Source: an uncultured Bacteroidales bacterium
Lineage (GTDB): Bacteria > Bacteroidota > Bacteroidia > Bacteroidales > Paludibacteraceae
Assembly (NCBI GenBank): GCA_900319035.1
Contig: ONMU01000005.1
Span: 82,524-146,523, forward strand
Reading direction: 5' to 3'
Length of the DNA: 64,000 bases
This document shows positions 1,965 to 63,430 of the stretch, piece by piece. Below the pieces are notes generated by a model. That model had not been told where the DNA came from. It was given only the letters and a program-made list of their open reading frames with translations, and made no database searches. Each line of letters starts with the position of its first letter. The stretch's first letter is position 1. Both the position numbers and the translations under genes were made by a program.

Positions 1965-3200
1965 TTACGGAACAATCCACTTCTTTGGGTCTATTTTTGT
2001 CCCGTCCGGCAAAACAGGCTTGCTCAGCACGCGTACCCAACTCGGTCTTCCTTCGGATTTGTCCTGCGACTTGTACTCATAGCTGTTCGGACATGGATCA
2101 TCCGCATTGTATCCCTCTTTGTCCTTTACCAAACCCAATGACCAACCTTCGCTGTTCAAGACACCCTCATCCCATGTGGTATATGCCCAAACGGTCTCTC
2201 CCCACCATCTCCAAGGACGAGCTAACCAAACACTCTGCTTGCGGCTTTTGGGGTATTCTTTGACTTGCTCTTTCACCACTTTCTCTCCCACGGTTTTACT
2301 GGTTCGAAGGGTCGTCACAGACGGTTTTAACTCGTCCTCGGTCGCCAACCGGATGTGACATTTATAGAATAGCATACCCCGTTTGCCCTCTTCACTTCTG
2401 CCTGCCGCGATGTAACACTTATCGCCTTTCTCGCCGTTGATATTGGCTACGATCGTTGCCTTGTTCACGCACATCGTCATCGCTCCGAAGATAAAATCGA
2501 CACCTCCTGCCAAAATTCCGCCTTCCCAGTAGATACTTGCTCCCTCATCGCCGTACAACACATCCTGTCGTCCCACGGCACGGCAGTTCTTCAAACGTGC
2601 GTTCGTTGCTCCCTCGGTAAACGAGATAGCTGCTGCCCGCTCTCTGTATTTCTTCTTTTGCACCTCTGTCGAACCCACCTCTTTCGGTCGCTCTGGCATC
2701 ACTTTCTTTGGCCGCTCTTTCGCTGTCCACGGCATGTCGGATTGACTGATATCCACCAGACTGTCTGCTGCTTCTTTCTCGCAGACATACAGGTTAAACG
2801 AGTTCTCAAAGATAATATTCTCTGCATAGAAATCCGGAGCTGTCACCAATACCGATGCATTCCATCGTCTCTCTCTCGAACCACCATAGTTCACGCGGCT
2901 ACCCATACTCTTGTACTGGTATCCATGCCCGTAGTACCAAGTCAGTCGCACAGCCTCCGGATCGGCTTCTACTCCTCCGTTCCTTAAACCGATAGAAGGT
3001 TTCTTACTCGCGTTCTTCAAACTCAATCCCGGTACATCAATCGTCAATTCCTCGCAATATGTCCCCGGTTCAATCCAGATTGTCGTCCTCTCTCCCCGTT
3101 CCTTATACACAACCCGCGCACTATCTACCGCTGCCGTCACGCTCTCTCCCGCAGAAACGTGTAGCACTAAGAATAATATACTCGCTACGAAAATATTCAT
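1965..3200 (-). CDS. pectin methylesterase (carbohydrate esterase family 8)
   Basis: The enzyme removes methyl groups from galacturonan and should be exported: residues 1-18 form a signal peptide ending VSAG. The CE8 landmarks appear in order: PGTYCEE (46-52), GRQDVLYGD (210-218, acid Asp), GGVDFIFGA (232-240, nucleophile Asp) and LARPWR (326-331). At the first conserved Gln site (QAVAL in plant enzymes) this protein reads RAAAI with Arg188. Some Bacteroidota members seem to differ there too, so activity is not excluded. A charged Lys/Glu/Pro-rich insert lies at about 160-187. The ATG lies inside a heptamer repeat (3197-3231). The gene is last in the minus-strand run and fits the uronate genes at 55-60 kb. 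Confidence 0.85.
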   Translation of the reverse strand: MNIFVASILFLVLHVSAGESVTAAVDSARVVYKERGERTTIWIEPGTYCEELTIDVPGLSLKNASKKPSIGLRNGGVEADPEAVRLTWYYGHGYQYKSMGSRVNYGGSRERRWNASVLVTAPDFYAENIIFENSFNLYVCEKEAADSLVDISQSDMPWTAKERPKKVMPERPKEVGSTEVQKKKYRERAAAISFTEGATNARLKNCRAVGRQDVLYGDEGASIYWEGGILAGGVDFIFGAMTMCVNKATIVANINGEKGDKCYIAAGRSEEGKRGMLFYKCHIRLATEDELKPSVTTLRTSKTVGEKVVKEQVKEYPKSRKQSVWLARPWRWWGETVWAYTTWDEGVLNSEGWSLGLVKDKEGYNADDPCPNSYEYKSQDKSEGRPSWVRVLSKPVLPDGTKIDPKKWIVP

Positions 3201-3231
3201 TATTAATTATTCACTATTCATTATTCATTAT
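3197..3231. repeat. heptamer repeat, unit TCATTAT/TAATTAT, 5 units
   Basis: Five 7-base units (TCATTAT, TAATTAT, TCACTAT, TCATTAT, TCATTAT). It contains both the pectinesterase ATG (3198-3200) and the stop codon of the 3221-3409 frame. Confidence 0.85.
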
Positions 3232-3409
3232 TATCCACCAGCATTTCGCATTTCTTGCAATCGAAGGTAAGGCGAAGGGTTTTGCCCGTACGGAGACGCA
3301 GAAAACGCGGTTCCTTATCTTTCGGATAAGGATTAATCTTGCGGCAATGTCCCAGCTCAAAGAGCAGGCAGTATTTGCAAGTCATCAAAGGATAGTTGCT
3401 CGTCTCCAT
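3221..3409 (-). CDS. detached C-terminal Cys4 segment of a U32 family protein
   Basis: This 62-residue frame reads PLMTCKYCLLFELGHC near its start and FDCKKCEML near its end, giving a Cys pair plus a C-x2-C that resembles the very C-terminus of long Bacteroidota U32 proteins. It overlaps the end of the U32 gene by 25 bases in another frame. The two frames together look like one ancestral gene that lost an internal piece and its frame. It might be translated by coupling, or be a remnant. Protein-coding character is supported by the conserved pattern rather than by its length. Confidence 0.55.
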   Translation of the reverse strand: METSNYPLMTCKYCLLFELGHCRKINPYPKDKEPRFLRLRTGKTLRLTFDCKKCEMLVDNNE

Positions 3410-4854: not shown

Positions 4855-4856
4855 AA

Positions 4857-5435: not shown

Positions 5436-5440
5436 AAAAT

Positions 5441-5475
5441 ATCAAATCTCAAATGTCAAATTTCAAATCTTGAAT
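5441..5475. repeat. heptamer repeat, unit NTCAAAT, 5 units
   Basis: Units ATCAAAT, CTCAAAT, GTCAAAT, TTCAAAT, CTTGAAT. The block supplies the last two residues and the stop codon of rimM (5463-5465) and fills the spacer to the SpoU gene. Confidence 0.85.
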
Positions 5476-6357: not shown

Positions 6358-6909
6358 TTAATTTCCCACAATCGCACTAATCTCAACATGGTAGATCAGC
6401 GTCGAGTAGGGCGGAATATAACCGGTGGTACCTTCCGTTCCCATGCCTTCCGCTTTGTTGTACTTGTCGCTGTTGTATTTCTCGTAGTCGTACCCCAAAT
6501 ATGCCGGGATATACAACTCAATCGTACCTTTGTTATGTATCTTGTGGCATCCTTCCGAGAAGCCCGGAATAGTACTTGGCAGATAGAGCGACACGTTCTT
6601 TCCGGCACTAACGGTATAACCATTAATCAGCTTCACCGAGTAGTCGCACACTATTGTACTCGTTGAGTTCGGTTTGGCATCGCCGTACGATGCCATGGGA
6701 TCAGAGATGATCTTGTATTGCAAACCGGTCGAAGTCGTCACCACATTGTCTTTCTTGGCGTTGTCCAACAACCATAACTCATTCTGCGTTTTCCAATCCG
6801 CCCAGTTATTCGTTTTGCAAGAGGATAAAAATGCACAAAAGATAAGAAGAATGGAAACAAATCCTTTCAACTTTAAACTTTCAACTTTCAACTTTATTTG
6901 GCTATCCAT
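6358..6909 (-). CDS. FKBP-type peptidyl-prolyl isomerase lipoprotein
   Basis: An envelope proline isomerase of the FKBP fold. After the N-terminal repeat-derived leader comes a hydrophobic segment and lipobox LSSC (Cys31). The FKBP core is seen in GLQYKII, YSVKLINGYTV, IPGFSEGCHKI, IELYIPAYLGYD and the last strand TLIYHVEI. Several active-site aromatic residues differ from classical FKBP, so chaperone activity may outweigh isomerase activity. The start MDSQIKLKVESLKLKG is written by a heptamer repeat (6865-6892), and the ATG lies inside the last codons of the EnvC-like gene. Confidence 0.82.
   Translation of the reverse strand: MDSQIKLKVESLKLKGFVSILLIFCAFLSSCKTNNWADWKTQNELWLLDNAKKDNVVTTSTGLQYKIISDPMASYGDAKPNSTSTIVCDYSVKLINGYTVSAGKNVSLYLPSTIPGFSEGCHKIHNKGTIELYIPAYLGYDYEKYNSDKYNKAEGMGTEGTTGYIPPYSTLIYHVEISAIVGN
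6865..6892. repeat. heptamer repeat, unit TTTCAAC, 4 units
   Basis: TTTCAAC, TTTAAAC, TTTCAAC, TTTCAAC. On the coding strand it yields KLKVESLKLK, the cytoplasmic n-region of the FKBP lipoprotein signal. Confidence 0.88.
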
Positions 6910-8144
6910 AATTCGGGATTTAAAATGTTTCTGTCTTTATATACTTGGAAATAGAGTTCCGTTTTCTGGTCTTGTTCGGGGTCTGTGAAGATCGTACCGA
7001 TGACTTGCTTTGTCTCCACATTATCCCCTTGTTTGACGTTCAGTTTGCTCAGGTTCGAATACACGGTTCGGTAGTTACCGTGCTGAATAATCACAGCATA
7101 CGTATTCGCTACCATGAAGCAACTCGTTACCTCTCCTTTATATACCGCCCGAGCTTTTGAACCGGCTACGGTCTGCAGGTATATACCCTTGTTGTCAATC
7201 GTCACATGCTCATACACCGCGTGTTGCTGCTTACCGAAATGACCGCTGATCATGCCTTTCTCCACAGGCCACGGTAACCGACCTTTGTTCGCCTCAAATC
7301 CTCCGGCTATCAGTTTCTGTTCTTTGGTCAGCGAAGTCTTCGACGCTTTCTCCGTCTGTTTGCGGATCATTTCGTCAATCTTCTTGTTCAACTCTGCTAC
7401 TTTCTTCTGTTGCTGCTTGAGCTGTTTGTTCAGATCTTTCTCTTTGCTCTTCAACTGGCTCAGCATATTCTTCTGCTTGCGTTCGTCACGTTTGAGCTTG
7501 TCCTGCTCACGTTTACGAGTGTCCAAGACCGTCAACTTATCATGTTTGTTGGCTTTGAGCAAATCGTTCTGCACGTCTATCTCTGCTTGCGTGTTCTCTA
7601 TCCGTTTCACTTGTTGCTGACGGTAACGGGCGAACTCTCGCAGGTATCTGGCACGACGTGCTAACTGCTGAAAACTGTCGCTACTCATCAGAAACAGTAA
7701 CGGAGACTGCTGCAAACGGGCAAAATGACTCTGACGAACCATCTCCGCGTAGTCGTTTTTGTAACCGGTCAGCACTACTTGCAGCGAATCGCGGGTAGTA
7801 CCCAGACGATTCATCTCTTTGTTCAACGCAATGATCTCGTTGTCCAAGGTCGTGATCAGTTTCTTTTGGGTCTTTATATTTTGTCCGATGAGTTGCAACT
7901 TGTTCATCGTCGCACTCTCGTCTTTCTTGGTCTGCTTAAGCATCTTGTTCGTGTGCTCAATCTCCTCTTGCAGCTTCTTTTGTTTCTTCTGCAAGTCCTT
8001 CACATTATCCGCAGCCTGAAGTGGACAAAGCACAAAGCACAAAGGACAAAGGACTAATAAGATTAGTCGAACCCATTTCGTCTTTTGTCTTTTAACGAGA
8101 GCAACGAGCGGTCTTATGTCTTTCAGCGAAGCGGTCATAACCAT
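6894..8144 (-). CDS. envC: EnvC-like murein hydrolase activator (coiled coil plus degenerate LytM domain)
   Basis: EnvC-type proteins switch on amidases at the division site and do not cut murein themselves. Here residues 46-280 form long charged coiled coils (DNVKDLQKKQKKLQ onward), and residues 290-416 are an M23/LytM domain. The metal ligands are lost: the HxxxD site reads HVTIDN and the HxH site reads ELYFQV, which fits an activator rather than an enzyme. The signal peptide core (VLCPLCFVLCPL) is itself encoded by a heptamer repeat (8023-8050). The start lies within another dispersed repeat. Gene order dut, TPR, DUF4292, envC is common in Bacteroidales. Confidence 0.85.
   Translation of the reverse strand: MVMTASLKDIRPLVALVKRQKTKWVRLILLVLCPLCFVLCPLQAADNVKDLQKKQKKLQEEIEHTNKMLKQTKKDESATMNKLQLIGQNIKTQKKLITTLDNEIIALNKEMNRLGTTRDSLQVVLTGYKNDYAEMVRQSHFARLQQSPLLFLMSSDSFQQLARRARYLREFARYRQQQVKRIENTQAEIDVQNDLLKANKHDKLTVLDTRKREQDKLKRDERKQKNMLSQLKSKEKDLNKQLKQQQKKVAELNKKIDEMIRKQTEKASKTSLTKEQKLIAGGFEANKGRLPWPVEKGMISGHFGKQQHAVYEHVTIDNKGIYLQTVAGSKARAVYKGEVTSCFMVANTYAVIIQHGNYRTVYSNLSKLNVKQGDNVETKQVIGTIFTDPEQDQKTELYFQVYKDRNILNPELWIAK
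8023..8054. repeat. heptamer repeat, unit GGACAAA/GCACAAA, 4.5 units
   Basis: GGACAAA, GCACAAA, GCACAAA, GGACAAA, GGAC. Read on the minus strand it encodes VLCPLCFVLCPL, the hydrophobic core of the EnvC-like signal peptide. Confidence 0.9.
8091..8144. repeat. AGCGAAGCGGTC-type dispersed repeat at the envC start
   Basis: The block contains GAGCAACGAGCGGTCTTATG and TTTCAGCGAAGCGGTCATAA. Related blocks are at 23811-23860, 30332-30391 and 33936-34022. It supplies the first residues of the EnvC-like protein. Confidence 0.65.
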
Positions 8145-9701: not shown

Positions 9702-9753
9702 CTTAACTCTTTAACGTTTTGATGCAATCAAAACCATTTTAACCATTTAACGT
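9674..9753. repeat. TTTAACGTTTT...AAAACCATTTTAAC repeat cluster upstream of the TPR gene
   Basis: Two tandem hairpin-like copies (AACGTTTTAC-GCA-GTAAAACC and AACGTTTTGATGCAATCAAAACC) followed by ATTTTAACCATTTAACG. It includes the TPR gene start and fills the space to dut. Confidence 0.75.
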
Positions 9754-11758: not shown

Positions 11759-14700
11759 ATGGATTTTTTAGGATTAATTACTAAGCTTTTCGGCAACAAG
11801 GCGCAGAAGGATATGAAAGCCATACAGCCGATAGTGGATCAGATCAAAGCACAGTACGAAGTGATTGATGCGCTCTCCAACGATGAGCTGCGTGCTCATT
11901 CGTGGGCGTTGATGGACAAGCTCAAAACAGCTGTCGCAGACAAGAAATCTCAAATCGCAAACCTCAAATCTCAAATTGAGACCACACCTATTGAGAAGCG
12001 TGAGAAGATCTACAACGAGGTGGACAAACTCGAGAAGGAGATCAAGGACAAATACGAGGAAGTGTTGAACGAGATTCTGCCCGAGGCATATGCGATCGTC
12101 AAATCAACTGCACGTCGTTTTGCCGAGAGCGAGACGGTAGAGGTGACCGCGACCGAGATGGATAGAGCCTTGGCTGCTGACCCGCGTTTTGATTTTGTGG
12201 AGATAGTAGGCGGCGATAATCTCGCCAAGGCAGTGTATAAGAACCACTGGATGGCGGGCGGTAATGAGATCAAGTGGGACATGATCCACTATGACGTACA
12301 GCTCTTCGGTGGTGTCGTTCTTCATCAGGGTAAGATCGCCGAGATGGCAACGGGTGAGGGTAAGACCCTTGTAGCAACCCTTCCGGTGTACCTCAACGCG
12401 CTGACGCATGAGGGCGTTCACGTGGTGACGGTCAACGACTACCTTGCTAAACGTGACTCGGAGTGGAACGGACCGATCTATATGTTCCTCGGCTTGACGG
12501 TCGATTGTATCGACAAACACCGTCCGAACTCCGATGAACGCCGCAAAGCCTATGCTTGCGACATCACTTTCGGTACGAACAACGAGTTCGGTTTCGACTA
12601 CCTGCGTGATAACATGGCTACTTCGCCGCTTGACCTCGTGCAGCGCGGACACAACTACGCTATCGTCGATGAGGTGGACTCCGTCTTGATTGACGATGCC
12701 CGTACGCCGTTGATCATCAGCGGTCCGGTGCCCAAGGGTGAGGATCAGCTCTTCGATGAATACAAAGACCGTGTAGCCGCTCTTGTTCGTCAGCAGACCA
12801 CGCTCACGACCAAACTGTTGGCTGAGGCGAAAGCGAAGATGGGTTCCGCGGACGAGAAGGAGAAAGAGGCAGGTGAGTTGGCACTCTTCCGTTCGTTCAA
12901 AGGAATGCCGAAATCGAAGGCGCTCATCAAATATCTGTCCGAGCCGGGCGTCAAAGTGCGTATGCAGAAAACAGAGGAGTTCTATCTCCAAGAGAACGAG
13001 AAGAATATGCACATCGCTACCGACGAGCTCTTCTTCGTCATCGACGAGAAGAACAAGTCCATCGAGTTGACCGACAAAGGTATTGATGCGCTGACCGGTA
13101 CGACCGATGACCCGAATTTCTTCGTCCTGCCGGATGTGGGTTCCGAAATGGCGGAGCTGGAAAACGAGACCGCGCTCTCAGCCGATGAGAAACAGCAGAA
13201 GAAAGACGAGATCCTCACCAACTATTCGATCAAGTCCGAGCGCGTACACACCGTTCACCAGTTGCTCAAAGCATATACCCTCTTCGAGAAAGATGTCGAT
13301 TATATCATCGACGGCGGCGAGGTGAAGATCGTGGATGAGCAGACCGGTCGTGTGATGGAAGGCCGCCGCTGGTCGGACGGTCTGCATCAGGCAGTGGAAG
13401 CGAAGGAGAACGTGAAGGTCGAAGGTGCAACGCAGACTTTCGCTACCATCACGCTGCAGAACTACTTCCGTATGTACCACAAGCTTGCCGGTATGACCGG
13501 TACCGCAGAGACCGAGGCAGGTGAGTTCTGGAATATCTACAAACTCGATGTGGTAGTTATCCCGACCAATAAACCCATCGCTCGTCACGATATGAACGAC
13601 CGTATCTATCGTACCAAACGCGAGAAATACAACGCCGTCATCGACGAGATCGTGAACATGGTGAACCAAGGTCGTCCGGTGCTCGTGGGTACCACTTCGG
13701 TGGAGATCTCCGAGTTGCTGAGCCGTATGTTGACGCTCCGTAAGATCAAACATAACGTCCTCAACGCCAAACTCCACCAGCAGGAGGCGCAGATCGTTGC
13801 CGAAGCAGGTCGTGCAGGCGTGGTGACTATCGCTACGAACATGGCAGGTCGTGGTACCGATATCAAGCTGACGCCCGAAGTGAAAGCAGCAGGCGGTCTC
13901 GCGATCATCGGTACCGAGCGTCATGAGAGCCGACGTGTGGATCGTCAGCTCCGTGGACGTGCCGGTCGTCAGGGTGACCCGGGTTCGTCGGTCTTCTACG
14001 TTTCGCTCGAGGACGACCTCATGCGTATGTTCGGCTCCGAGCGTATTGCTTCTATCATGGACCGTATGGGATTCGAGGAAGGCGAGATGATCGAGCACTC
14101 GATGATCTCTTCGTCTATCGAACGGGCACAGAAGAAAGTGGAGGAGAACAACTTCGGTATCCGTAAACGACTCATCGAATACGATGATGTCATGAACCAG
14201 CAGCGTAACCTCATCTACGCCAAACGTCGTCACGCCCTCATGGGTGAACGTATCGGTGTGGATATCACGAATATGATCTATGAGATCGCTGAGAACCTCG
14301 TGGCCGACGCTAAGTCTGCCAATGACTACGAGGGACTCAAGTTCGATGCTATGCAGGTCTTCGCGATCGAGTTGCCGTTCGACGAAGAGGTCTTCAGCCG
14401 CGGTAAACGCGATGTCCTCTCTAACGAACTCGCTGAGGCGGCGCTGGACAGCTTCAAACGTCGTATGGACAAACTGACCCAGATAGCTGACCCGCAGATC
14501 CAATACGTCAACGAGACCAAAGGACAGATGTACGAGAACATCCTTATCCCGATTACCGATGGTAAACGTGTCTATAACATCGCCGTGAACCTCAAGTTAG
14601 CGGCTGAGACGCATTGCAAAGAGGTGGTGAAGGAGTTCGAGAAACGTATGTTGCTCTACGTCATCGATGATGAATGGAAAGAGCATCTCCGTCAGTTGGA

Positions 14701-16865: not shown

Positions 16866-16907
16866 GTAATTCGTAATTCTTAATTTTTAATTTTTAATTT
16901 TTAATTC
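16866..16907. repeat. heptamer repeat, units GTAATTC/TTAATTT, 6 units
   Basis: GTAATTC twice, then TTAATTT three times, then TTAATTC. It fills the junction between fmt and the HD-domain gene and overlaps the expected start of the latter. Confidence 0.9.
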
Positions 16908-17840
16908 TCAATGTATTCCATTGAGGAATGACCGTGCGTCCATTCTCTTTTTCCCTGGTACTTGCAGTTCCAGTATGCGAACCGCGCCTTCCTTGCACGG
17001 CACGATGATGGAAGATTTGTCCATTGTCCATTGTCCATTGTCCATTGTCTCAACGGCAAATATTTTCGCGTTTTCGAAAATATTTCCGTTGATATTGAGG
17101 TTCGTCCATGCGGCAGGGTAAGGGCTGAGTCCGCGTACGAAATTATGTACCTGCTCCGCCGTCATCCGGTCGAAATGAATCTCGCAGTCTTCTTTGAAGA
17201 TCTTCGGCGCAGGACGTAACTCCGCTACCTCCGGTTGCGGAGTAGTGGGTACTGCAATGCCTTTGTTCTCGCAATCGATAATCAGATCCACCGTGCGGGT
17301 GACCATCTCCTTGCTGAGCTCCATCAGTCTATCGTGTACCGAGCCCACGTTCTCGTCTTCGCCGATAGGAATACGTTCCTGCAGGATCATGTTGCCCGTG
17401 TCGATCTCATGTTTGAGCATGAAGGTCGTCAGACCGGTTTCGCGGTCTCCGTTCATGACTGCCCAGTTAATCGGCGCTGCGCCTCGGTACTGCGGCAGTA
17501 AGGAACCGTGGATATTGAAGGTGCCTAAACGGGGCATCGTCCAAACGACCTCCGGCAACATCCGGAACGCCACTACTATCTGCAAGTCCGCATGGTACGA
17601 GCGCAGTTCTTCGATGAACGCCTCGTCTTTGAGTTTCTCGGGCTGCAAAACCGGCAGTCCTACCTCCAAGGCGTATTTCTTGACATCCGAATACTGCACC
17701 TGATGACCTCTTCCTGCCGGTTTGTCCGGCATCGTCACCACGGCTACTACGTTATATCCCCCTTCTACTAAGGTCCGCAGGCTCGCCACCGCAAACTCCG
17801 GTGTGCCTAAATATACTATTCTTAAATCTCTCTTTGTCAT
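16908..17840 (-). CDS. fmt: methionyl-tRNA formyltransferase
   Basis: Fmt formylates initiator Met-tRNA using 10-formyl-THF. The N-terminal catalytic domain shows YLGTPEFAVASL at the start, the catalytic NIHGSLLPQYRGAAPINWA (about 108-126) and TGLTTFMLKHEIDTGNMI, and the C-terminal OB-like domain ends near the stop. In the C-terminal domain a VETMDNGQWTMDKSS stretch is encoded by five heptamer units (17017-17051). The length of 310 is normal. It precedes the HD-domain gene on the same strand. Confidence 0.96.
   Translation of the reverse strand: MTKRDLRIVYLGTPEFAVASLRTLVEGGYNVVAVVTMPDKPAGRGHQVQYSDVKKYALEVGLPVLQPEKLKDEAFIEELRSYHADLQIVVAFRMLPEVVWTMPRLGTFNIHGSLLPQYRGAAPINWAVMNGDRETGLTTFMLKHEIDTGNMILQERIPIGEDENVGSVHDRLMELSKEMVTRTVDLIIDCENKGIAVPTTPQPEVAELRPAPKIFKEDCEIHFDRMTAEQVHNFVRGLSPYPAAWTNLNINGNIFENAKIFAVETMDNGQWTMDKSSIIVPCKEGAVRILELQVPGKKRMDARSFLNGIH
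17017..17051. repeat. heptamer repeat inside fmt, unit TTGTCCA, 5 units
   Basis: TTGTCCA four times and TTGTCTC. Coding strand product MDNGQWTMD, inserted in a C-terminal loop. Confidence 0.93.
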
Positions 17841-23163: not shown

Positions 23164-23795
23164 GAGAGAAACTGAATGATCTCGTTCGCGAGATCGGAGA
23201 TAGAAGTCCTACCATCATTGATGATGGTCAGGACTTTTTTTGTTGCCTTTTGCTCATCAGTAGGATGGAACTGTTGTGCGCGCATACGCGCGCGTACCTT
23301 ATTGATATGCTCCTCCGTCGCGTCTCCATGGTAGTCGCGTGCGATCGTTCGTTGAAGCCGTACCTCTTCCGGTGCATCCACCACTACGATCCTGTCGCAT
23401 AAGCTGTCTATACCTGCCTCAAAGAGAATAGCCGACTCCACGAAGAGCACGCTGAACTCTGAATTCTGAACTCTGAATTCTGAACTCTGAACTCTGATCT
23501 CTTCCTTGACCGCCGGATGAACGATTGCATTGAGTTGCTGTAATAACTCGGGTTCGGCAAAGACCCGCTGCGAGACATAAGAGGTGTTGTAACTGCCGGT
23601 GAAAGGATGTTGAGGCGAAGGCACGAACGCCTCGGTGCCCAAGAGCGCAATGATGGCTTTGCGAACCTCTGCGTTCTCCACAATGATCCGTTTGGCTTCT
23701 CTATCGCAGTCATAGACCGCGTAGCCACGTGCAGCTAAAACCTGCACAATAGTGGATTTACCACTTCCGATACCTCCTGTGATGCCTACTAACAT
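23160..23795 (-). CDS. coaE: dephospho-CoA kinase
   Basis: CoaE phosphorylates dephospho-CoA, the last step of coenzyme A synthesis. The P-loop GITGGIGSGKST is at the start, followed by DCDREAKRI and the LVESAILFEAG-like stretch, read here as LFVESAILFEAGID. Before that last motif a SSEFRVQNSEFS peptide is inserted, encoded by seven perfect heptamer units. The total of 211 residues remains near normal. It is the last gene of the dxs operon. Confidence 0.95.
   Translation of the reverse strand: MLVGITGGIGSGKSTIVQVLAARGYAVYDCDREAKRIIVENAEVRKAIIALLGTEAFVPSPQHPFTGSYNTSYVSQRVFAEPELLQQLNAIVHPAVKEEIRVQSSEFRVQNSEFSVLFVESAILFEAGIDSLCDRIVVVDAPEEVRLQRTIARDYHGDATEEHINKVRARMRAQQFHPTDEQKATKKVLTIINDGRTSISDLANEIIQFLS
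23452..23500. repeat. heptamer repeat inside coaE, unit CTGAAYT, 7 units
   Basis: CTGAACT and CTGAATT alternate with no interruption through six units, plus CTGATCT. The coding-strand product has a seven-residue period (SSEFRVQ, NSEF). This is the most regular block in the window. Confidence 0.95.
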
Positions 23796-23810
23796 ATTTT
23801 GTCTTTATTC

Positions 23811-23860: not shown

Positions 23861-25813
23861 GTATATAAACGGTTGCATCTCAGCCGTGACGAACTGATAG
23901 ATCACCACGATAGCAACGCAAGCTACTATCACCATGAGCCATAAAGGCATTGCACTGAATGCCAAACGGTACCTTCTCTTCCAGTTGGTTGGCAGCCAGT
24001 GGATCATCATTCCGGCAACGAACATCGCTACAACCCATCGGTACTCCCATAGAAACTCAGGAATGATGGCATTGCTCCATGCGCCACCTATCTGATTGAC
24101 CATGTTCTTTGCCGTGTTCCATGCTACCTCGTTGGCGGTCTCCGGATCGAGGTTACTGCTGCTTCGGAAGAAAAGACGGGTGAAGGTGATAAACGTGAAG
24201 GTCTGTAGAATCGCCCAGACGGTGGATAGCGAGTTCGCAAACCGGTTCTCTCTTTCGGAGATCTCCTCCCTGTCCAGCGAGATGAGCCAATAGACATACC
24301 GAATAGCGGTACCGAGCCAGATGAGTGCCGACCAGACCGCAAACATACGCCATACTGGCAGGTTCGTGAAGAAATCCGCTACACACAAACCTGCTGTCAG
24401 CAAGGTGATGCTCGCAAAACGAAGATGCCAATTCATCTTCCGCCAGATCTTCTCAATGATCATTCCGAAACCGTTGATACCGCCCCATATGATGAAATTC
24501 CAACTTGCTCCATGCCAAAGACCGCCCAAGACCTGCGTGATGAACGAGTTCAGATTTGCGTAGAGAAGCTTCAGATTTGAGGATTTGAAGATTTGAAGAT
24601 TTGAAGATTGCGCCCAATGGTTGTATATCGCTACGCATACCATGAATACGGCAAAGGGCACGAGGATCTGCCACCACCATCCTGTCAAGGCGGCGGAGAC
24701 AAAAGCAATCAAGCTTAACCAGAAATACGTACCAAAACCGATCTTCCTGTTGCCGCCTAAGGGTATATACAGATAGGTCTTCAGCCAGCGTCCTAAGGAC
24801 ATATGCCATCTTCTCCAGAACTCCTGTGGACTTTGGCTCTTATAGGGCGAGTTGAAGTTCATCGGCAGGTAGAATCCCATCAGCATCGCTACGCCGATAG
24901 CTATATCCGTATAACCCGAGAAGTCCGCATAGACCTGCAGCGAGTAGGCAAAGAGCGCAAACAGGTTCTCGAATCCCGAGAAGAGCAAGGGGTTGTCAAA
25001 CACACGGTCAATGAGATTCACTGCCAAGTAATCCGACATGATGATCTTCTTCGCCAAACCATTTAAGATCCAGAAAACCGCTATACCGAACAACCTCCGG
25101 CTCAGACGGAACGGTTTGTATAGTTGTGGAATGAACTCCTCTGCACGCACGATAGGTCCGGCTACCAACTGCGGGAAGAAAGAGACGTAGAACCCAAAAT
25201 CGAGTATGTTCTTCACCGGCTGAATACGTCCCCTAAAGACATCCGCCGTATAGGAGATCACTTGGAAGATATAGAACGAGATACCTACCGGCAGCACGAT
25301 CGTATCGACACTGAACCGACCTGCTTCGGCAAAACCGTTACCCACATAGGCGAAGATGTCAAACACGCGGAATCCGGTGCCGAACAGGTCATTGATCATG
25401 TTCGTGAAGAAATACGCGTACTTGAAATATGCCAATAACCCCAAGTCAATGACTACCGAAAGTGCCAAGAAAAGATAGGCAACAGGTAACTTGTAATTTT
25501 TAATTCGTAATTCGTAATTGTTAATTTGAGAATGTTTAATTCTCTGTGCGATAAGCCAATCGCTCAGCGTCACAAACGCCAAGAGAAGCAGGAACAAACC
25601 GCTGGTCTTGTAGTAAAAGAACCAACTGACGAACAGCAGATATACATTGCGCAGATGGAGTCTTCCTTTCTCCTTTCCTGTCCCGCTATTCCCTATTATC
25701 AGCGCGAATAGCGCATACACGATCGCAAAGAACGCCCAGAAATAGAACTGAGTGAACAATAACGGGCTATTCTCGTCAAAAGCAAATATGTAATGTAAAA
25801 AGTCCACCTTCAA
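23849..25813 (-). CDS. MBOAT family O-acyltransferase (AlgI/DltB-like)
   Basis: A polytopic enzyme of 654 residues that transfers acyl groups to a cell-surface polymer or lipid. The conserved His lies in GGLWHGASWNFIIWGG, preceded by SPQEFWRRWHMSLGRWLKTYLYIPLGG, both typical of AlgI-like proteins. About a dozen hydrophobic segments are visible. Two repeat-derived inserts occur: NNYELRIKNYKL (25493-25541) and SSNLQIFKSSNLK (24571-24610), both in predicted loops. The adjacent SGNH protein is the usual partner, so an envelope polysaccharide acetylation pair is likely. Confidence 0.9.
   Translation of the reverse strand: MKVDFLHYIFAFDENSPLLFTQFYFWAFFAIVYALFALIIGNSGTGKEKGRLHLRNVYLLFVSWFFYYKTSGLFLLLLAFVTLSDWLIAQRIKHSQINNYELRIKNYKLPVAYLFLALSVVIDLGLLAYFKYAYFFTNMINDLFGTGFRVFDIFAYVGNGFAEAGRFSVDTIVLPVGISFYIFQVISYTADVFRGRIQPVKNILDFGFYVSFFPQLVAGPIVRAEEFIPQLYKPFRLSRRLFGIAVFWILNGLAKKIIMSDYLAVNLIDRVFDNPLLFSGFENLFALFAYSLQVYADFSGYTDIAIGVAMLMGFYLPMNFNSPYKSQSPQEFWRRWHMSLGRWLKTYLYIPLGGNRKIGFGTYFWLSLIAFVSAALTGWWWQILVPFAVFMVCVAIYNHWAQSSNLQIFKSSNLKLLYANLNSFITQVLGGLWHGASWNFIIWGGINGFGMIIEKIWRKMNWHLRFASITLLTAGLCVADFFTNLPVWRMFAVWSALIWLGTAIRYVYWLISLDREEISERENRFANSLSTVWAILQTFTFITFTRLFFRSSSNLDPETANEVAWNTAKNMVNQIGGAWSNAIIPEFLWEYRWVVAMFVAGMMIHWLPTNWKRRYRLAFSAMPLWLMVIVACVAIVVIYQFVTAEMQPFIYFQF
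24571..24610. repeat. 8-base tandem repeat inside the MBOAT gene, unit GAAGATTT, 5 units
   Basis: TCAGATTT, GAGGATTT, GAAGATTT, GAAGATTT, GAAGATTG. Coding-strand peptide SSNLQIFKSSNLK, a rare 8-base unit in the window. Confidence 0.9.
25493..25541. repeat. heptamer repeat inside the MBOAT gene, units GTAATTC/TTAATTT, 7 units
   Basis: GTAATTT, TTAATTC, GTAATTC, GTAATTG, TTAATTT, GAGAATG, TTTAATT. Coding-strand peptide NNYELRIKNYKL. Confidence 0.9.
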
Positions 25814-25817: not shown

Positions 25818-25847
25818 CTCCTTTCACCTTTCACCTTTCCATTTCCT
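25818..25847. repeat. heptamer repeat, unit CTTTCAC
   Basis: CTTTCAC, CTTTCAC, CTTTCCA between the MBOAT and SGNH genes; it covers the SGNH stop region. Confidence 0.75.
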
Positions 25848-27150
25848 CTCCTTCCAAAATCCACTGTACTACAGCGTTTCCGGCTTTGCGGGCACCGCTG
25901 CGCATGAAATGGATACCGTCGCTGCCTGCCAAACCGTTCTCTTTCCAACGAGCCATACTTCCGGCACCGCCCATATAGTTGAAAAGACTGAAATAGGCGA
26001 TATTCTCCTCCATTGCCATCTTCCTAAGCAGGCGATCCATATAAGGTATCATCGGATACGTGATCCATTCTCCGTTTTCCTGCGTCAGCATATCACTCGG
26101 ACCGATGAAGAGGATAGACGCCTCTGGTGCGCAGGATTGCAAATACCGAACCTGCTCGCGCAAACCCTTGACAATCGAACTGATGGTACTCGGGTTCTTG
26201 TTAAATGGTATCGCATTTCCGCCAAACTGCATGATGATCAGCGTCACGTTCTGCTCGCGGTAGAATGAACTCAGTTGCTGACGGTCGATCTTCGTGAAGA
26301 CGGTTCCTAAACATCCGCGCATAGGGATATTGTCCACGATGACACCGGTCTTGCTCTCCTGCGAAAGGGCATAGACGGAACCTTTGCCGGACAGATAAAC
26401 GGAGTCGCCGGACGTCCTGTAATGAACGCTGCTGTCGGCGAAGATGCGCCATGTGTTGTAACGTGCGTTATTGTCCTGCGGCGTACAGATTGCGATGACT
26501 TCTTCACTGCCGCTTACGAGACTGTCGTTCATCACTGCCACTTGTCCCATCACGCCGTAGAGACCGTCCTCACGTTGCGTCCGTTTAGGTCCATAGACCA
26601 TGTATCGCTGCGGACCTTGAGCAGGCTGTATCTGTTTGCCGTTCATGACAAGACGCTGTCTAACCGTACGGCTCGGGATCGTCTGAGCCAAAGGCAGCAG
26701 ACCTGCTCCGGAACCGCCGTAACGGCTCTGCAAGGCTTCGCGTATCTGTTGCGTCATTCGGTCTTCTTCTATCTGGCTGTCTCCGTAATGAAGCACCCTC
26801 ACTTTCTTGGTGTCGGCTTGATCCAACGAAGCGTAGAAGGACTTCAGGAAGACGCGGCTGTCAACAGTGCTGTCCACCGCCACACGAGGTACCTCTATAC
26901 GCGGCTCTTCTTTTACTTCTGGGGATTCGGGTAGGATAGTATCTTGCGGCTCAGGAAGGCTTGCATCTATCTCCTCCTCTATCTCCTCACATTCCTGTTG
27001 AGACGTAGTGGGGTTTCCTATCACCTCTGCTAAGGTCGGCCACCTCAGTTCGTACTCATGGTACACAACCCTTCCCGGCAGAACCATACTCAGCCCTGCC
27101 AAACCTGCCATTATACAAGCAATAAATATGAATACTTTACTGGGACTCAA
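25831..27150 (-). CDS. SGNH/GDSL-type hydrolase or acetyltransferase partner
   Basis: The 439-residue protein has one N-terminal membrane segment (KVFIFIACIMAGLAGLSMVL), a Pro/Glu-rich linker (about 40-75) and an SGNH domain beginning VRVLHYGDSQIEEDRM (block I Ser), with a Gly/Asn block IIMQFGGNA, and ending in a DGIHFMRSGARKAG block V (Asp and His). It is adjacent to the MBOAT gene, and together they probably acetylate a surface polysaccharide. The start is a TTG inside a CTCAAAT heptamer block, with a stop codon two codons upstream. Confidence 0.83.
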   Translation of the reverse strand: MSPSKVFIFIACIMAGLAGLSMVLPGRVVYHEYELRWPTLAEVIGNPTTSQQECEEIEEEIDASLPEPQDTILPESPEVKEEPRIEVPRVAVDSTVDSRVFLKSFYASLDQADTKKVRVLHYGDSQIEEDRMTQQIREALQSRYGGSGAGLLPLAQTIPSRTVRQRLVMNGKQIQPAQGPQRYMVYGPKRTQREDGLYGVMGQVAVMNDSLVSGSEEVIAICTPQDNNARYNTWRIFADSSVHYRTSGDSVYLSGKGSVYALSQESKTGVIVDNIPMRGCLGTVFTKIDRQQLSSFYREQNVTLIIMQFGGNAIPFNKNPSTISSIVKGLREQVRYLQSCAPEASILFIGPSDMLTQENGEWITYPMIPYMDRLLRKMAMEENIAYFSLFNYMGGAGSMARWKENGLAGSDGIHFMRSGARKAGNAVVQWILEGEEMER

Positions 27151-27166
27151 ATCTCAAATCTCAAAT
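27146..27166. repeat. heptamer repeat, unit CTCAAAT, 3 units
   Basis: Three perfect units between trkH and the SGNH gene; the SGNH start codon (TTG on the minus strand, 27148-27150) is part of it. Confidence 0.85.
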
Positions 27167-27170
27167 CATT

Positions 27171-52781: not shown

Positions 52782-52826
52782 GGAAGTAATACGGACTTTT
52801 TACGGAGTTAATACGGACTTAATACC
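52782..52826. repeat. direct repeat TTAATACGGACTT upstream of sufC
   Basis: GTAATACGGACTTTTTACGGA, GTTAATACGGACTT and AATACC form an imperfect tandem array in the spacer before sufC. No standard promoter was found there. Confidence 0.7.
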
Positions 52827-54216: not shown

Positions 54217-55179
54217 GGCAAGCAGACTGCTTTTTTCAGGACAGTCACGGAAAATGCTTAGCGCTTCCGTGGCTTTCTTTTTATATTCGATCATCTTCTG
54301 CACGGCGTACTCGTCTCCCTTGAACCGCATCACAAACGCCTTGATCTCTTCCAACGTCCGTGCTTCCTCTTCCGGCGAATAACCTTTAGCCACTAACCTT
54401 TCGCCTTTCGCCTTTATAATATCCGTCTCGTCTTTCGGAGCCCGTCTCAGTGCTTCGATGAGCGGAAGCGTCACTTTGCCGTCACGCAAATCGCTCATGG
54501 TCGGTTTGCCGATCTCCTCCAAGTCGCTGTAGTCAAAAATATCGTCTTTGATCTGGAAACAGAGCCCCAATAACCGTCCATATTCCCGCAAAGCAGCTCG
54601 TTGCCGCTGGGTACAACCGGCACTCTCAGCTCCGGCTTCAGCGCAAGCCTGAAAGAGTTGCGCGGTTTTCTGTTCGATCACCTTATAATATTGCTCCTCG
54701 TCAATCCACATCGATTGTCCGACATGCAGTTGTACCATCTCGCCGCTACTAAGGCTCTTACCAAGATTCGCTACGATCTCCAAAATCCGTATATTACGCA
54801 CTTCGGCAGTCAGTCCGATCACTTTTGCTAACATGTAATCGCCAATGAGTACCGCCACTTTGTTGGTCCATTTGGTATGAACAGCCGCTACTCCTCTGCG
54901 CATATCCGAATCATCCACTACATCGTCATGAATCAGACTTGCTGTGTGCAGCAACTCCAACGCAACGGCAGACTTAAGCGTCTTATCCGTCACAGGGTTA
55001 CAGATCTGTGCGGCTAATAACACCAACAATGGTCGCAGCTGTTTGCCGCGACGTGAACCCACGTAGCGAAGCAGTTCTTGTTGCAACTTATTGTCGACAC
55101 GCAGCGAACTTTCCATCATCCGCTCGTACTGCTTCCATTCTGCCTCTATCGGCTTCCTTATGTCTGATAAATCTGCCAT
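54184..55179 (-). CDS. polyprenyl diphosphate synthase (trans-isoprenyl type)
   Basis: The enzyme extends isoprenyl diphosphates for the quinone side chain or related lipids. Both Asp-rich motifs are seen, HDDVVDDSDMRRG (first) and IKDDIFDY (second), with GKQLRPLLVLLAA before them. The 331-residue length suits octaprenyl or similar synthases. It would supply MenA (62567-63430). A KAKGERLVAKG insert near residue 260 is written by a CTTTCGC heptamer block. Its own promoter is at 55197-55228. Confidence 0.93.
   Translation of the reverse strand: MADLSDIRKPIEAEWKQYERMMESSLRVDNKLQQELLRYVGSRRGKQLRPLLVLLAAQICNPVTDKTLKSAVALELLHTASLIHDDVVDDSDMRRGVAAVHTKWTNKVAVLIGDYMLAKVIGLTAEVRNIRILEIVANLGKSLSSGEMVQLHVGQSMWIDEEQYYKVIEQKTAQLFQACAEAGAESAGCTQRQRAALREYGRLLGLCFQIKDDIFDYSDLEEIGKPTMSDLRDGKVTLPLIEALRRAPKDETDIIKAKGERLVAKGYSPEEEARTLEEIKAFVMRFKGDEYAVQKMIEYKKKATEALSIFRDCPEKSSLLALLDYAINRVQ
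54398..54418. repeat. heptamer repeat inside the polyprenyl synthase gene, unit CTTTCGC, 3 units
   Basis: CTTTCGC, CTTTCGC, CTTTATA. Peptide IKAKGERLV. Confidence 0.8.
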
Positions 55180-56846: not shown

Positions 56847-57872
56847 ATGGCTAAAATTATTACATTGGGCGAGATTATGCTCCGCCTGAGTCCGGAAGGA
56901 CAAGACCGTTTCATTCAATCTGATCACTTCCGTATCATCCCCGGTGGTGGTGAGGCTAACGTAGCTATTTCGTGCGCTAACTATGGTCACGAGGCTTATC
57001 TGGTAACCAAACTGCCGAAACATGAGATCGGTCAGATTGCTGTTAACTCGCTGCGTCGTTACGGCGTGAAGGACGATTATATCGTTCGTGGCGGCGACCG
57101 CGTGGGTCTGTATTACTGCGAGACAGGTGCTTCGATGCGTCCGTCGAAGGTTATCTACGACCGTGCTCACAGCGCTATCGCTGAGGCTGATCCGAAGGAT
57201 TTTGACTTCGACAAGATCATGGAAGGTGCAGCATGGTTCCACTGGAGCGGCATCACTCCGGCTATCTCGGACAAAGCTGCTGAGATCACCAAACTCGCTT
57301 GCGAGGCTGCTAAACGTCACGGCGTAACCGTTTCGGTTGACCTGAACTTCCGTAAGAAACTGTGGACCAGCGAGAAAGCTATCTCGATCATGCGTCCGTT
57401 GATGAAGTACGTAGATGTTTGTATCGGTAACGAAGAGGACGCTGAGTTGTGTCTCGGCTTCAAGCCCGATGCAGATGTAGAAGGCGGCGAGACCAACGCT
57501 GAGGGCTACAAAGGCATCTTCGAGCAGATGATGAAGGAGTTCGGCTTCAAGTATGTTGTTTCGACGCTGCGCGAGAGCTTCAGTGCTACGTTCAACGGCT
57601 GGAAGGCGATGATCTACAACGGCAAGGAGTTCTACCAGAGCAAACGTTACGAGATCAACCCGATCATCGACCGCGTAGGTGGTGGTGACAGCTTCTCCGG
57701 CGGTCTGATCCACGGTATGCTCAAATATCCGGACAACCAAGGTGCAGCGCTTGAGTTCGCAGTAGCAGCAAGTGCTCTGAAGCACACCATCAACGGCGAC
57801 TACAACCTTGTTTCTGAGGATGAGGTTCTGAGCCTTGCAGGTGGTAACGCGAATGGTCGAGTACAACGCTAA
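56847..57872 (+). CDS. kdgK: 2-keto-3-deoxygluconate kinase (PfkB family)
   Basis: KdgK phosphorylates KDG from uronate breakdown to KDPG. The 341-residue PfkB protein shows IITLGEIMLRLSP at the start, the first signature GGGEANVAISCANYG (about 34-48), SVDLNFRKKLW and the ATP/anion-hole motif DRVGGGDSFSGGLIHGML with the catalytic Asp (about 272-289). It lies between uxaC and the KDPG aldolase gene, which supports KDG rather than another sugar as substrate. Confidence 0.93.
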   Translation: MAKIITLGEIMLRLSPEGQDRFIQSDHFRIIPGGGEANVAISCANYGHEAYLVTKLPKHEIGQIAVNSLRRYGVKDDYIVRGGDRVGLYYCETGASMRPSKVIYDRAHSAIAEADPKDFDFDKIMEGAAWFHWSGITPAISDKAAEITKLACEAAKRHGVTVSVDLNFRKKLWTSEKAISIMRPLMKYVDVCIGNEEDAELCLGFKPDADVEGGETNAEGYKGIFEQMMKEFGFKYVVSTLRESFSATFNGWKAMIYNGKEFYQSKRYEINPIIDRVGGGDSFSGGLIHGMLKYPDNQGAALEFAVAASALKHTINGDYNLVSEDEVLSLAGGNANGRVQR

Positions 57873-57906
57873 ATGAGAAAATGTGAAAATGATAAAATAA
57901 GAAAAT
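57873..57906. repeat. 7-8 base tandem repeat, unit AAAATGAG, between kdgK and the aldolase gene
   Basis: AAATGAG, AAAATGTG, AAAATGAT, AAAATAAG, AAAATTC. Confidence 0.75.
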
Positions 57907-58578: not shown

Positions 58579-58614
58579 CTCGTAATAACGTCATAACGTA
58601 ATTACGTAATAACG
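58577..58614. repeat. 8-base tandem repeat, unit GTAATAAC, 4 units
   Basis: GTAATAAC, GTCATAAC, GTAATTAC, GTAATAAC between the aldolase and transporter genes. Confidence 0.85.
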
Positions 58615-62197: not shown

Positions 62198-62565
62198 ACG
62201 GATTATACACTATTTTATTACTCCTCGCGTCGAACATCTTCATGACGCTTGCGTGGTATGGTCACCTGAAACTGCAGCAGACCGGTTTCTTCACCAACGC
62301 CACGCCTCTTATCTTTGTGATTCTCCTTTCCTGGGGCATCGCTTTCTTCGAGTATTGTCTGCAAGTGCCGGCCAACCGCATCGGTTTTGCGGGAAATGGC
62401 GGACCCTTCACGCTGATGCAACTGAAGGTCATTCAGGAAGTCATCACCCTGATGGTCTTTGTCGTCTTCTCGGCTATCGCTTTCCAGATGCCCCTGCGCT
62501 GGAACCACTGCGTAGCCTTCCTCTTGCTCATCGGTGCTGTCTATTTTGTCTTTGGTTTCAAATAA
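62194..62565 (+). CDS. DMT-family small membrane protein (DUF486)
   Basis: A 123-residue inner-membrane protein with four hydrophobic segments, including the conserved SWGIAFFEYCLQVPANRIG and FTLMQLKVIQEVITLMVF. The family resembles small multidrug-type transporters, with substrate unknown. It overlaps the ttcA-like stop by 4 bases. Confidence 0.9.
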   Translation: MNGLYTILLLLASNIFMTLAWYGHLKLQQTGFFTNATPLIFVILLSWGIAFFEYCLQVPANRIGFAGNGGPFTLMQLKVIQEVITLMVFVVFSAIAFQMPLRWNHCVAFLLLIGAVYFVFGFK

Positions 62566-62566
62566 T

Positions 62567-63430
62567 ATGAATCCCTATATTCAATCGCTTCGTCTCCGCA
62601 CCTTACCCCTCTCGATGTCGGGTATCGTCTTAGGAACGGGTTTGGCCGGCTGGTCCAACTGGTGGATCTTCGCCCTGGCTATCCTCACGACGCTGAGTCT
62701 TCAGATCCTGAGCAACCTGAGCAACGAACTGGGTGACGCCCTCAAGGGCACGGACGCGGATCAGAAAGGACGCGAGGCGTATGGGCTGCAAGCCGGCACC
62801 ATCACCGTCAAGCAGATGAAAACAATGATATGGTGCTTCGTCGGTCTCTGTGTCCTCTTCGGCACCGCCCTCGTCTTCACCGCCTTCGGTATACCAATCA
62901 TCAATCATCATTCATCAATCACCAATGTCCTCCTCTTCTTAGGACTCGGACTCCTCGCCATCATAGGCGCAGTCACCTACACGCTTGGCAAGCATAGTTA
63001 CGGCTACATGGGTCTCGGGGATTTAGGTGTGTTCCTGTTCTTCGGTCTGCTCAGCACCCTCGGCGGGTATTACCTGCAGACGCAGACGCTGACGTCCGAA
63101 GTCATATGGTGCGGCATCGCCATCGGCTTACCCTGCGTCGGGGTGCTCAACCTCAATAACATACGCGATATGAATAATGACCGCGCGCATGGCAAGCGCA
63201 CGCTCGCGAGCAGGTTAGGCGCGCGCGGGGGAAAGATTTACCATACCTGCCTCCTGTTTATCTGCCTGATCATCTTCGTGACGTTCGACCACAACTGGGT
63301 GCTTTGCGTAGCGCCCGTCTGGGCTTGGCATGTGGGATATATATGGACGCACGAGAGCAGTAGTCTGGACAAACAGATGCCCGTCCTCATGCTCTCCACC
63401 CTGCTCGTCGCAGCCCTTGGATGGGTATGA
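62567..63430 (+). CDS. menA: 1,4-dihydroxy-2-naphthoate polyprenyltransferase
   Basis: MenA joins the polyprenyl chain to DHNA in menaquinone synthesis. The 287-residue UbiA-type membrane enzyme has the first Asp motif in NLSNELGDALKGTDADQ and the second in NLNNIRDMNNDRAHGKRT, between eight or so hydrophobic helices. The start YIQSLRLRTLPLSMSGIVLG is typical. A PIINHHSSITN loop is written by five heptamer units. The ATG at 62567 follows the DMT gene by 1 base. Confidence 0.93.
   Translation: MNPYIQSLRLRTLPLSMSGIVLGTGLAGWSNWWIFALAILTTLSLQILSNLSNELGDALKGTDADQKGREAYGLQAGTITVKQMKTMIWCFVGLCVLFGTALVFTAFGIPIINHHSSITNVLLFLGLGLLAIIGAVTYTLGKHSYGYMGLGDLGVFLFFGLLSTLGGYYLQTQTLTSEVIWCGIAIGLPCVGVLNLNNIRDMNNDRAHGKRTLASRLGARGGKIYHTCLLFICLIIFVTFDHNWVLCVAPVWAWHVGYIWTHESSSLDKQMPVLMLSTLLVAALGWV
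62895..62929. repeat. heptamer repeat inside menA, unit CAATCAT, 5 units
   Basis: CAATCAT, CAATCAT, CATTCAT, CAATCAC, CAATGTC. Peptide INHHSSITN, in a loop between membrane helices. Confidence 0.9.

What the first reader, a model, noticed from the sequence alone, without database searches (positions are those of the whole stretch)
3197..62929. A window-wide system of 7-base tandem repeats with many different unit sequences
At roughly 28 loci short arrays of 3-7 units occur. The unit sequence differs (TCATTAT, TTTCAAC, GGACAAA, AAATCTC, TTGTCCA, CTGAAYT, TTAATTT, CTCAAAT, CAATCAT, CTTTCGC, AATGTAC and more) but its length is nearly always 7; a few are 8, 9 or 14. Arrays occur in spacers and inside genes on both strands. 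Because 3 x 7 = 21, an array in a gene stays in frame as a seven-residue peptide period (SQIANLK, NSEFRVQ, KLKIQNS). Strand slippage of one unit family would not create so many unrelated units of one length, so a copying or templating mechanism that fixes length rather than sequence is worth considering. Heptanucleotide STRR repeats are known in filamentous cyanobacteria; I do not know of a described counterpart in Bacteroidales.
Basis: seen in the sequence. Interest (0 to 1): 0.92.

Follow-up and report, generated by a model that had tools for sequence, protein, structure and literature searches.

The report
Swappable seven-base repeat arrays
A group of gut bacteria carries many short stretches of a seven-base word repeated about four and a half times, in gaps between genes and inside essential genes; each species favours its own words, and sister species can carry different words at the same spot with similar neighbours, which hints that the repeats are copied from place to place.

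Summary
Exact lag-7 runs of 12 or more number 10 in the window (lags 1-6: 0; lag 8: 1) and 47 in 402 kb of its genome (lag 6: 1; lag 8: 14). In 1.75 Mb of genus-like sequence (gut MAGs labelled Paludibacteraceae or Bacteroidales) periods 7, 8 and 11 give 239, 81 and 72 arrays; 5, 6 and 13 give 1, 3 and 0. Heptamer repeats are known in cyanobacteria, Xanthomonas, Beggiatoaceae and some Bacteroidetes, so the kind is not new.

Less expected: (1) units recur at unrelated sites (33 distinct in 68 arrays, 57 expected) and bloom by genome: CGACTAA has 130 hits in the sister genome, 9 in the window's. (2) Of 15 spacers with arrays in both sisters, 6 differ in family; flanks at swap loci are no more divergent than elsewhere. 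(3) Arrays sit in SecA, Fmt, CoaE and DXS; the Fmt loop changed fill type at least 20 times on trees.

Best reading: short arrays spread by trans copying, adjusted by unit-length slippage and filtered by selection. Trans copying is inferred, not shown. RVT_1 was absent from 9 of 10 array-rich genomes searched, the window's included.

The parts
3194..3232 (.). TATTCAT array, 5.6 units, at a gene boundary; sister has 14 nt less; G146 has TTCAATT and G161 TCTTTCA in this spacer
5437..5468 (.). AAATNTC array, shared with sister G151 at equal length
6864..6895 (.). CTTTCAA array at the start of an FKBP-type isomerase gene; identical in sister
8025..8054 (.). ACAAAGC array near the 5' end of an M23 peptidase gene (residues 31-40; signal-peptide region by inference)
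11945..11976 (+). AAATCTC array inside secA (residues 63-73, [11 protein letters not shown]); 57 of 57 distinct relatives have the same length there; 2 of 44 sequences (window and L080) reach lag-7 identity 0.6
16867..16912 (.). TTAATTT/TAATTCT array over the fmt stop codon; sister 7 nt shorter; G146 has TCAAATC here
17017..17049 (-). TTGTCCA array inside fmt; site empty (21-27 nt) or filled (36-48 nt, once 87) by other families or GC-rich hairpins in other species
23452..23502 (-). CTGAAYT array inside coaE, shared with sister
24574..24609 (-). period-8 GATTTGAA array inside an MBOAT gene; G146 has a period-7 GCCAACA array here
25486..25526 (-). GTAATTY array inside the same MBOAT gene; four relatives are 24 or 33 nt shorter there (a fifth, poor match 39)
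25820..25839 (.). CCTTTCA array at a gene end; sister has a different AT-rich sequence
27146..27167 (.). CTCAAAT array; sister has 21 nt more
30202..30233 (-). AATTTTK array inside dxs; G146 has a GCTAACG array at the site
31452..31481 (-). CTCTMAA array inside dxs (16 residues more than in three relatives)
32238..32280 (.). TATTMAT array in a divergent spacer
54397..54415 (-). CCTTTCG array inside a polyprenyl synthetase gene; sister has a GC-rich hairpin-like sequence
57871..57906 (.). period-8 AAATGAGA array; the sister's interval is longer and holds no array by the same rule
58581..58614 (.). period-8 CGTAATAA array; sister carries ATCGTAC repeats
62895..62926 (+). CAATCAT array inside a ubiA-family gene

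Best explanation
The window samples a population of very short tandem arrays, about 32 nt long, mostly of period 7 (8 and 11 less often), found across its genus. Most likely, tracts of existing arrays are copied in trans to other sites of the same genome (short-patch copying or template switching with arrays as donors), including over older arrays; copy number then shifts by whole units through slippage, and purifying selection leaves survivors in spacers, at stop codons and in tolerant protein loops. Shown: period peak, unit recurrence, genome-specific blooms, different families at the same site in sister genomes with ordinary flanks, whole-unit length changes, depletion in coding sequence. 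Inferred: trans copying, array donors, absence of a function.
For: Period spectrum for periods 5 to 13: 1, 3, 239, 81, 17, 8, 72, 10, 0 in 1.745 Mb, 0-1 in Markov controls; period-7 lengths peak at 30-35 nt, 104 of 239 (periods were scanned apart, so one array may be counted under two). Recurrence: 33 distinct units in 68 arrays, nulls 57.1 (min 47) and 61.2 (min 54). Blooms: exact 3-copy hits in 178 genomes have variance/mean 23.5, 7.8, 17.5 for TTGTCCA, CTTTCAA, CGACTAA; with up to 2 mismatches CGACTAA is 9 in own, 130 in sister G151, 197 in G073 and 0 in G147, while TTGTCCA is 33, 32, 3 and 93. Twenty arrays with TTGTCCA-like units from 18 loci of own and G092 share no 12-mer in 45-nt flanks between loci. 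Of 5 sites with G151 CGACTAA arrays and an aligned own allele, own has CTCTCAA, AATTTTC or irregular CAATCGT repeats at 3 and shorter CGACTAA at 2. Of 15 spacers with an array in both sisters 6 differ in family. 200-nt flank divergence averages 0.040 at seven swap loci, 0.046 at sixteen same-family loci, 0.058 at random places. Fmt fill type changes at least 25 times on the fmt tree (51 rows) and 20 on the SecA tree (44 rows).
Against: No copying event was seen and no donor identified. Local slippage from short seeds fits some fills (empty fmt alleles can contain GGACAAAGG or GTCGAAA), and whole-unit indels are plain slippage. At the SecA site 57 of 57 sequences have one length, so that array arose without net insertion. 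Relatives other than the sister have an array in 10 of 41 comparisons where own has one and 7 of 43 where it has none: no clear hot spot in spacers. The 12 genomes were chosen partly as extremes, and the backward-read control is not empty (0-9 hits a genome; in G146, with 7 hits, it is 4). Variant 'dialects' are suggestive only: TTGTCCT in 5 of 13 own arrays and 1 of 27 in G092, G035 and G147; TCGTCCA in 4 of 9 G147 arrays. The classes were assigned by hand for 28 of 39 loci, and very short imported tracts are not excluded.
Confidence: 0.47

Rival explanations
1. Local polymerase slippage alone: a replication or repair polymerase tends to slip by 7 nt, so arrays are born independently from local seeds at tolerated sites. 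This is the hypothesis of reference 33 as told in PMC4692102 (size of the DNA segment at the polymerase active site).
For: Differences of 14, 7, 21 and 28 nt at shared arrays; sharp floor at 7; seeds in some empty fmt alleles; hypothesis in the discussion of PMC4692102.
Against: Independent births do not predict unit recurrence, genome-specific blooms or the same family at three sites of one sister where the other has three different families. A length mode near 32 nt is not the monotonic decay that slippage would suggest, although exact runs alone do decline with length.
Confidence: 0.27
2. Short-tract homologous import: other species of the genus supply alleles with different arrays, exchanged through conserved flanking genes.
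For: fmt fill types are scattered over the trees; the immediate surroundings of the fmt array differ between the sisters.
Against: Flanks of swap loci are no more divergent than elsewhere, though the next nearest species differ by 14% or more in secA. Import does not explain one family blooming at many sites of one genome.
Confidence: 0.11
3. Selected binding sites: arrays bind a protein or RNA regulator, as MacGregor proposed for TAACTGA repeats near start codons.
For: 25 of 38 tandem-spacer arrays touch the upstream stop codon, null 13.8 with 99th percentile 20; variants are mildly concentrated at one phase, 0.635 against simulated 0.464-0.557.
Against: 33 different units in one genome sample, 21 of 68 arrays inside coding sequence; no excess at start codons (13 observed, 13.8 expected); different families at the same site in sister species.
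Confidence: 0.08
4. A reverse transcriptase or telomerase-like enzyme with a short RNA template writes the units.
For: Fixed unit length with family-specific sequence is what a short template would give (inference). G153, rich in CTTTCAA, has one RVT_1 match.
Against: No RVT_1 match in 14 of 16 genomes searched, including own, G151, G073, G092, G147 and G035; the genomes are incomplete drafts.
Confidence: 0.03

Closest known systems
STRR heptanucleotide repeats of filamentous cyanobacteria (Calothrix, Nostoc)
   Same: Short tandem heptamers, three units reported in Calothrix (passage of PMC4692102), also inside a functional RNA gene (title of Vioque 1997 seen as a reference in PMC2858038)
   Different: Other phylum; here tens of units with genome-specific blooms, sister-species swaps, and arrays inside essential protein genes
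TAACTGA direct repeats of Beggiatoaceae, cyanobacteria and five Bacteroidetes (MacGregor 2015, PMC4679880; abstract and section 10 read)
   Same: Heptamer direct repeats; includes Paludibacter propionicigenes; indels mostly in 7-nt steps between two close Cyanothece strains
   Different: One unit, mostly just upstream of start codons in BOGUAY; here many units, TAACTGA not among the 38 canonical units, position bias at stop codons
GGGAATC / GGGGAYT repeats of Xanthomonas and Nostoc (PMC4692102; passages and discussion read)
   Same: Heptamers, commonest array four units, spacers preferred, length and sequence variation between relatives
   Different: G-rich quadruplex formers; here A+T-rich units (351 of 476 unit bases)
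Small dispersed repeats of cyanobacteria (Elhai 2008) and Rickettsia palindromic elements (both recalled; no paper is held under the DOI I recalled for Elhai)
   Same: Very short elements without genes, dispersed without flanking homology, inserting in genes or functional RNAs
   Different: Those are defined sequences; here periodic arrays of many unit families

Membership tests
Over-represented bacterial heptanucleotide repeats (general kind) | Excess of period 7 over neighbouring periods | tested here: met
Over-represented bacterial heptanucleotide repeats (general kind) | Preference for non-coding sequence | tested here: met
   21 of 68 arrays in coding sequence against a coding fraction of 0.863 by my own gene caller
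TAACTGA repeats | Unit TAACTGA | tested here: not met
   not among 38 canonical units of 75 arrays
TAACTGA repeats | Position just upstream of start codons | tested here: not met
   13 of 38 at starts, 13.8 expected; 25 of 38 at upstream stops; starts are called by a simple script
GGGAATC-type quadruplex repeats | G-rich unit with a G-tract | tested here: not met
   unit base counts A 180, T 171, C 63, G 62
Cyanobacterial STRR | Cyanobacterial host | tested here: not met
   nearest named relatives are Bacteroidales MAGs
Cyanobacterial STRR | The published STRR unit sequences | not tested
   sequences recalled only; source not held
Small dispersed repeats / mobile micro-elements | Same sequence at unrelated sites without flanking homology | tested here: met
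   (no shared flank 12-mer between loci, 20 arrays)
Small dispersed repeats / mobile micro-elements | Demonstrated movement | tested here: inconclusive
   different families at one site in sisters but no event observed
REP elements with a Y1 transposase | Y1_Tnp gene in array-bearing genomes | tested here: inconclusive
   7 of 10 array-rich, 0 of 6 array-poor genomes (poor by three units only); absent from G151, G153, G156
Phase-variable simple sequence repeats | On/off switching within a population | not testable with these tools
   one genome per species

The most novel reading that the evidence does not exclude
Heptamer arrays are self-propagating micro-elements: arrays act as templates for one another, so that a unit family spreads in trans through a genome, overwrites other arrays in place and competes with other families, while the cell supplies a step of about 7 (or 8, 11) nt and a patch of about 32 nt. 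New protein segments in essential genes are a by-product.
Probability: 0.35. Interest if true: 0.88.

Novelty: new variant of a known kind. Interest (0 to 1): 0.72.

Why it matters
Heptamer repeats have been noticed in bacteria for decades; the papers I could read give hypotheses for their origin or role but no tested one. Here a close sister genome and 178 genomes of one genus make the origin testable: the unit is a heritable, genome-specific label, so births, swaps and spread can be tracked. If arrays do copy in trans, they would be very small selfish elements and a source of new peptide segments in housekeeping enzymes such as SecA, Fmt, CoaE and DXS.

Tried and rejected
Reverse transcriptase as writer: RVT_1 matched in 2 of 16 genomes (G101, G153); none in own, G151, G073, G092, G147, G035, G156, G075 or G113. 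Known RNA family: none at gathering score in the window. Core-plus-linker anatomy as a sign of binding sites: looked strong by eye and against a uniform null (0.672 against 0.492), but modest against simulated arrays passing the same detection (0.635 against 0.464-0.557 for period 7; for period 11 just above the simulated range); not used as a pillar. Array lengths of 7n+4 to 6 as a sign of microhomology slippage: better explained by variable positions that bound exact runs (my reading). Spacer hot spots: 10 of 41 against 7 of 43 for relatives beyond the sister; within the sister, another family where own's array is not shared (6 of 11) against any array where own has none (5 of 28), Fisher 0.044, post hoc. 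Length-preserving replacement as a mechanism: in coding sites length is probably held by selection, since spacer intervals do change length. One search's classes were miscounted by a script fault (last run in a stretch not flushed) and were redone. One fmt allele (L085) was mistyped and corrected by hand. Y1 transposase as mobiliser: 7 of 10 against 0 of 6 (Fisher 0.011), own only marginal at 22.6 bits, and missing from G151; kept as a lead.

Literature: searches. The sources of the polymerase hypothesis, of small dispersed repeats and of the RNase P STRR were looked up by recalled DOI, are not held and were not read.
Full report
1. Observation. The window is contig C57:82524-146523 of a 2.48-Mb, 97-contig genome, 91% complete. 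Tandem Repeats Finder at score 30 lists 79 rows, 32 of period 7. Counting exact lag-p runs of 12 or more, the window has 10 at lag 7, 1 at lag 8 and none at lags 1-6; second-order Markov controls average 0.0 at lag 7. In 402 kb of the same genome, window included, the counts are 0, 0, 0, 0, 0, 1, 47, 14, 4 for lags 1-9. Ten of those eleven contigs had been chosen because they hold hits to a TTGTCCA pattern, so density there is not a fair estimate. A set not chosen by repeats, 49 genus-like loci around fmt (895 kb; told apart by fmt identity), has 79 lag-7 runs and none at lags 1-6; 31 loci of other Bacteroidales (562 kb) have 4.

2. Anatomy. In 1.745 Mb of genus-like sequence (G151 left out) arrays scoring 12 or more number 1, 3, 239, 81, 17, 8, 72, 10 and 0 for periods 5 to 13, with 0-1 in third-order Markov sequence (each period was scanned on its own). 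Period-7 arrays peak at 30-35 nt (104 of 239); period-8 arrays have a median of 34 nt. Variants within arrays fall at one phase more often than in simulated arrays, but modestly.

3. Place. By a simple gene caller of my own, 21 of 68 period-7 arrays lie in genes and 47 in spacers or at contig edges, with 86% of the sample coding. Of 38 tandem-spacer arrays 25 touch the upstream stop codon (null mean 13.8, 99th percentile 20) and 13 the start (null 13.8). Genes with arrays in the window include secA, fmt, coaE, an MBOAT gene, dxs, a polyprenyl synthetase gene and a ubiA-family gene.

4. Units. The 68 arrays have 33 canonical units; units redrawn with the same base neighbours give 57 (minimum 47 of 300 draws) and genomic heptamers with matched A+T give 61 (minimum 54). 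So families recur. Twenty arrays with TTGTCCA-like units at 18 of 20 fetched loci in own and G092 share no 12-mer in their 45-nt flanks between loci.

5. Blooms. Exact three-copy searches of 178 genus genomes: TTGTCCA in 21 genomes (157 hits, 51 in G092), CTTTCAA in 91 (485 hits), CGACTAA in 12 (53 hits: 27 in G073, 14 in G151, 0 in own). Variance/mean is 23.5, 7.8 and 17.5. The built-in control for CTTTCAA is close to the same unit and is no control. With up to 2 mismatches in 12 genomes, chosen partly as extremes, in the order own, G151, G073, G092, G147, G035, G153, G156, G075, G113, G170, G146: CGACTAA 9, 130, 197, 36, 0, 35, 0, 0, 2, 29, 0, 7 (backward control 0-9 a genome) and TTGTCCA 33, 32, 3, 132, 93, 72, 0, 0, 1, 5, 2, 26 (control 0). 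Overlapping hits in one array count several times; divided by four, and with the exact CTTTCAA counts added, the unit-by-genome table still departs strongly from independence (chi-square 263, 22 df), and own against G151 does too (14.0, p 0.0009). Variant units differ between genomes, which I treat as suggestive.

6. Sister comparison. G151 is 96% identical over the secA stretch searched and 90-95% in the larger aligned blocks of the window. Shared arrays often have equal length; others differ by 14, 7, 21 or 28 nt. In aligned blocks 11 of 23 own period-7 arrays are shared at equal length and 4 with whole-unit indels; 2 are shared with other indels and 6 are weak or absent in the sister. In 54 tandem spacers G151 has an array in 15 of 20 compared where own has one and in 5 of 28 where own has none; of the 15, 9 are the same family (at most one base step) and 6 are not. 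Examples: C57:77312, own AATTTTC, G151 CGACTAA, no array in G032 or G036; C57:47311, own AAATGTC, G151 period-8 CGTTATTA; C57:68072, own AAATCTG, G151 period-8 CGTAATAA. At the five sites where G151 has CGACTAA arrays with an aligned own allele, own has another heptamer family at three, one of them irregular. Flank divergence over 200 nt averages 0.040 at seven swap loci, 0.043 at five array-versus-other loci, 0.046 at sixteen same-family loci and 0.058 at random places (28 of the 39 loci, classed by hand), so the change appears confined to the interval.

7. A site in a gene. The fmt C-terminal loop is empty (21-27 nt) in 12 of 54 rows; 32 are filled by TTGTCCA, GTACAAA, CTTTCAA, CCGTAAC or GTTAGCG repeats, period-8 GATTACG repeats or GC-rich hairpins; 10 are unclassified, seven of these a 36-nt form of a distant clade (typed by my own patterns; some rows are the same genome twice). 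The least number of type changes is 25 on the fmt tree without the loop (51 rows; 21 among 41 when unclassified fills are left out) and 20 on the SecA tree (44 rows); empty against filled changes 6 times on the fmt tree. In SecA all 57 distinct relatives have the same length at the array site; of 44 sequences, only the window and L080 (G146) reach lag-7 identity 0.6, with a weaker trace in G151 (0.58).

8. Mechanism. Whole-unit indels show slippage. Recurrence, blooms, lack of shared flanks and family differences confined to the array are not expected from independent local slippage and favour copying from array to array. This last step is inference. Candidate enzymes: RVT_1 matches in 2 of 16 genomes, G101 and the CTTTCAA-rich G153, and not in own, G151, G073, G092, G147 or G035; Y1_Tnp matches in 7 of 10 array-rich and 0 of 6 array-poor genomes but not in G151.

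9. Known systems. Over-representation of heptamers in bacteria is in print (passages and discussion of PMC4692102), as are TAACTGA repeats with a short list of Bacteroidetes including Paludibacter (PMC4679880, abstract and section 10; lineage). A search for Paludibacteraceae with tandem repeats found no paper. The listings, which cover only openly licensed papers, showed me no report of genome-specific unit blooms or in-place family swaps; I did not read beyond the papers named. I file this as a new variant of a known kind.

Noticed in passing
L277 2040-2075; L278 2069-2093; L279 2206-2252 counted on the reverse strand: Three Y1-transposase-like frames of 252-256 aa (G073, G092, G113) are followed 14-21 nt downstream by a period-11 array; in G073 and G113 its unit TCGTTAGTTAT contains TCGTTAG, a rotation of the reverse complement of the bloom heptamer CGACTAA; this 11-mer has 13, 9 and 6 hits in G073, G113 and G035, none in G151.
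   Followed up: partly
fmt loop, e.g. L074, L086, L095, L101, L102, L104; window ortholog 17017: GC-rich hairpin-like inserts (CCCTCCCTGAAGGGAAGGG type) of about the same size occupy the same loop in other species; the sister has one where the window has TTGTCCA.
   Followed up: partly
genus-like sequence; window 52787-52825: Period 11 is a separate peak (72 arrays), with 10 and 13 nearly empty.
   Followed up: partly
window 23801-23850 and 30333-30388: Two 23- and 25-bp tandem pairs share TACTCT and GCGAAGC; similar longer sequence appears in the sister near 57871.
   Followed up: no
window 9676-9753: 36-bp direct repeat, 2.2 copies.
   Followed up: no
window 3194-3232 and 32238-32280: TATTCAT arrays overlap the listed starts of minus-strand ORFs, so the array itself offers ATG codons every 7 nt.
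   Followed up: no
L280 1507-1541 counted on the reverse strand: A CTGAAAG heptamer array lies just upstream of a longer Y1-type frame in G147.
   Followed up: no
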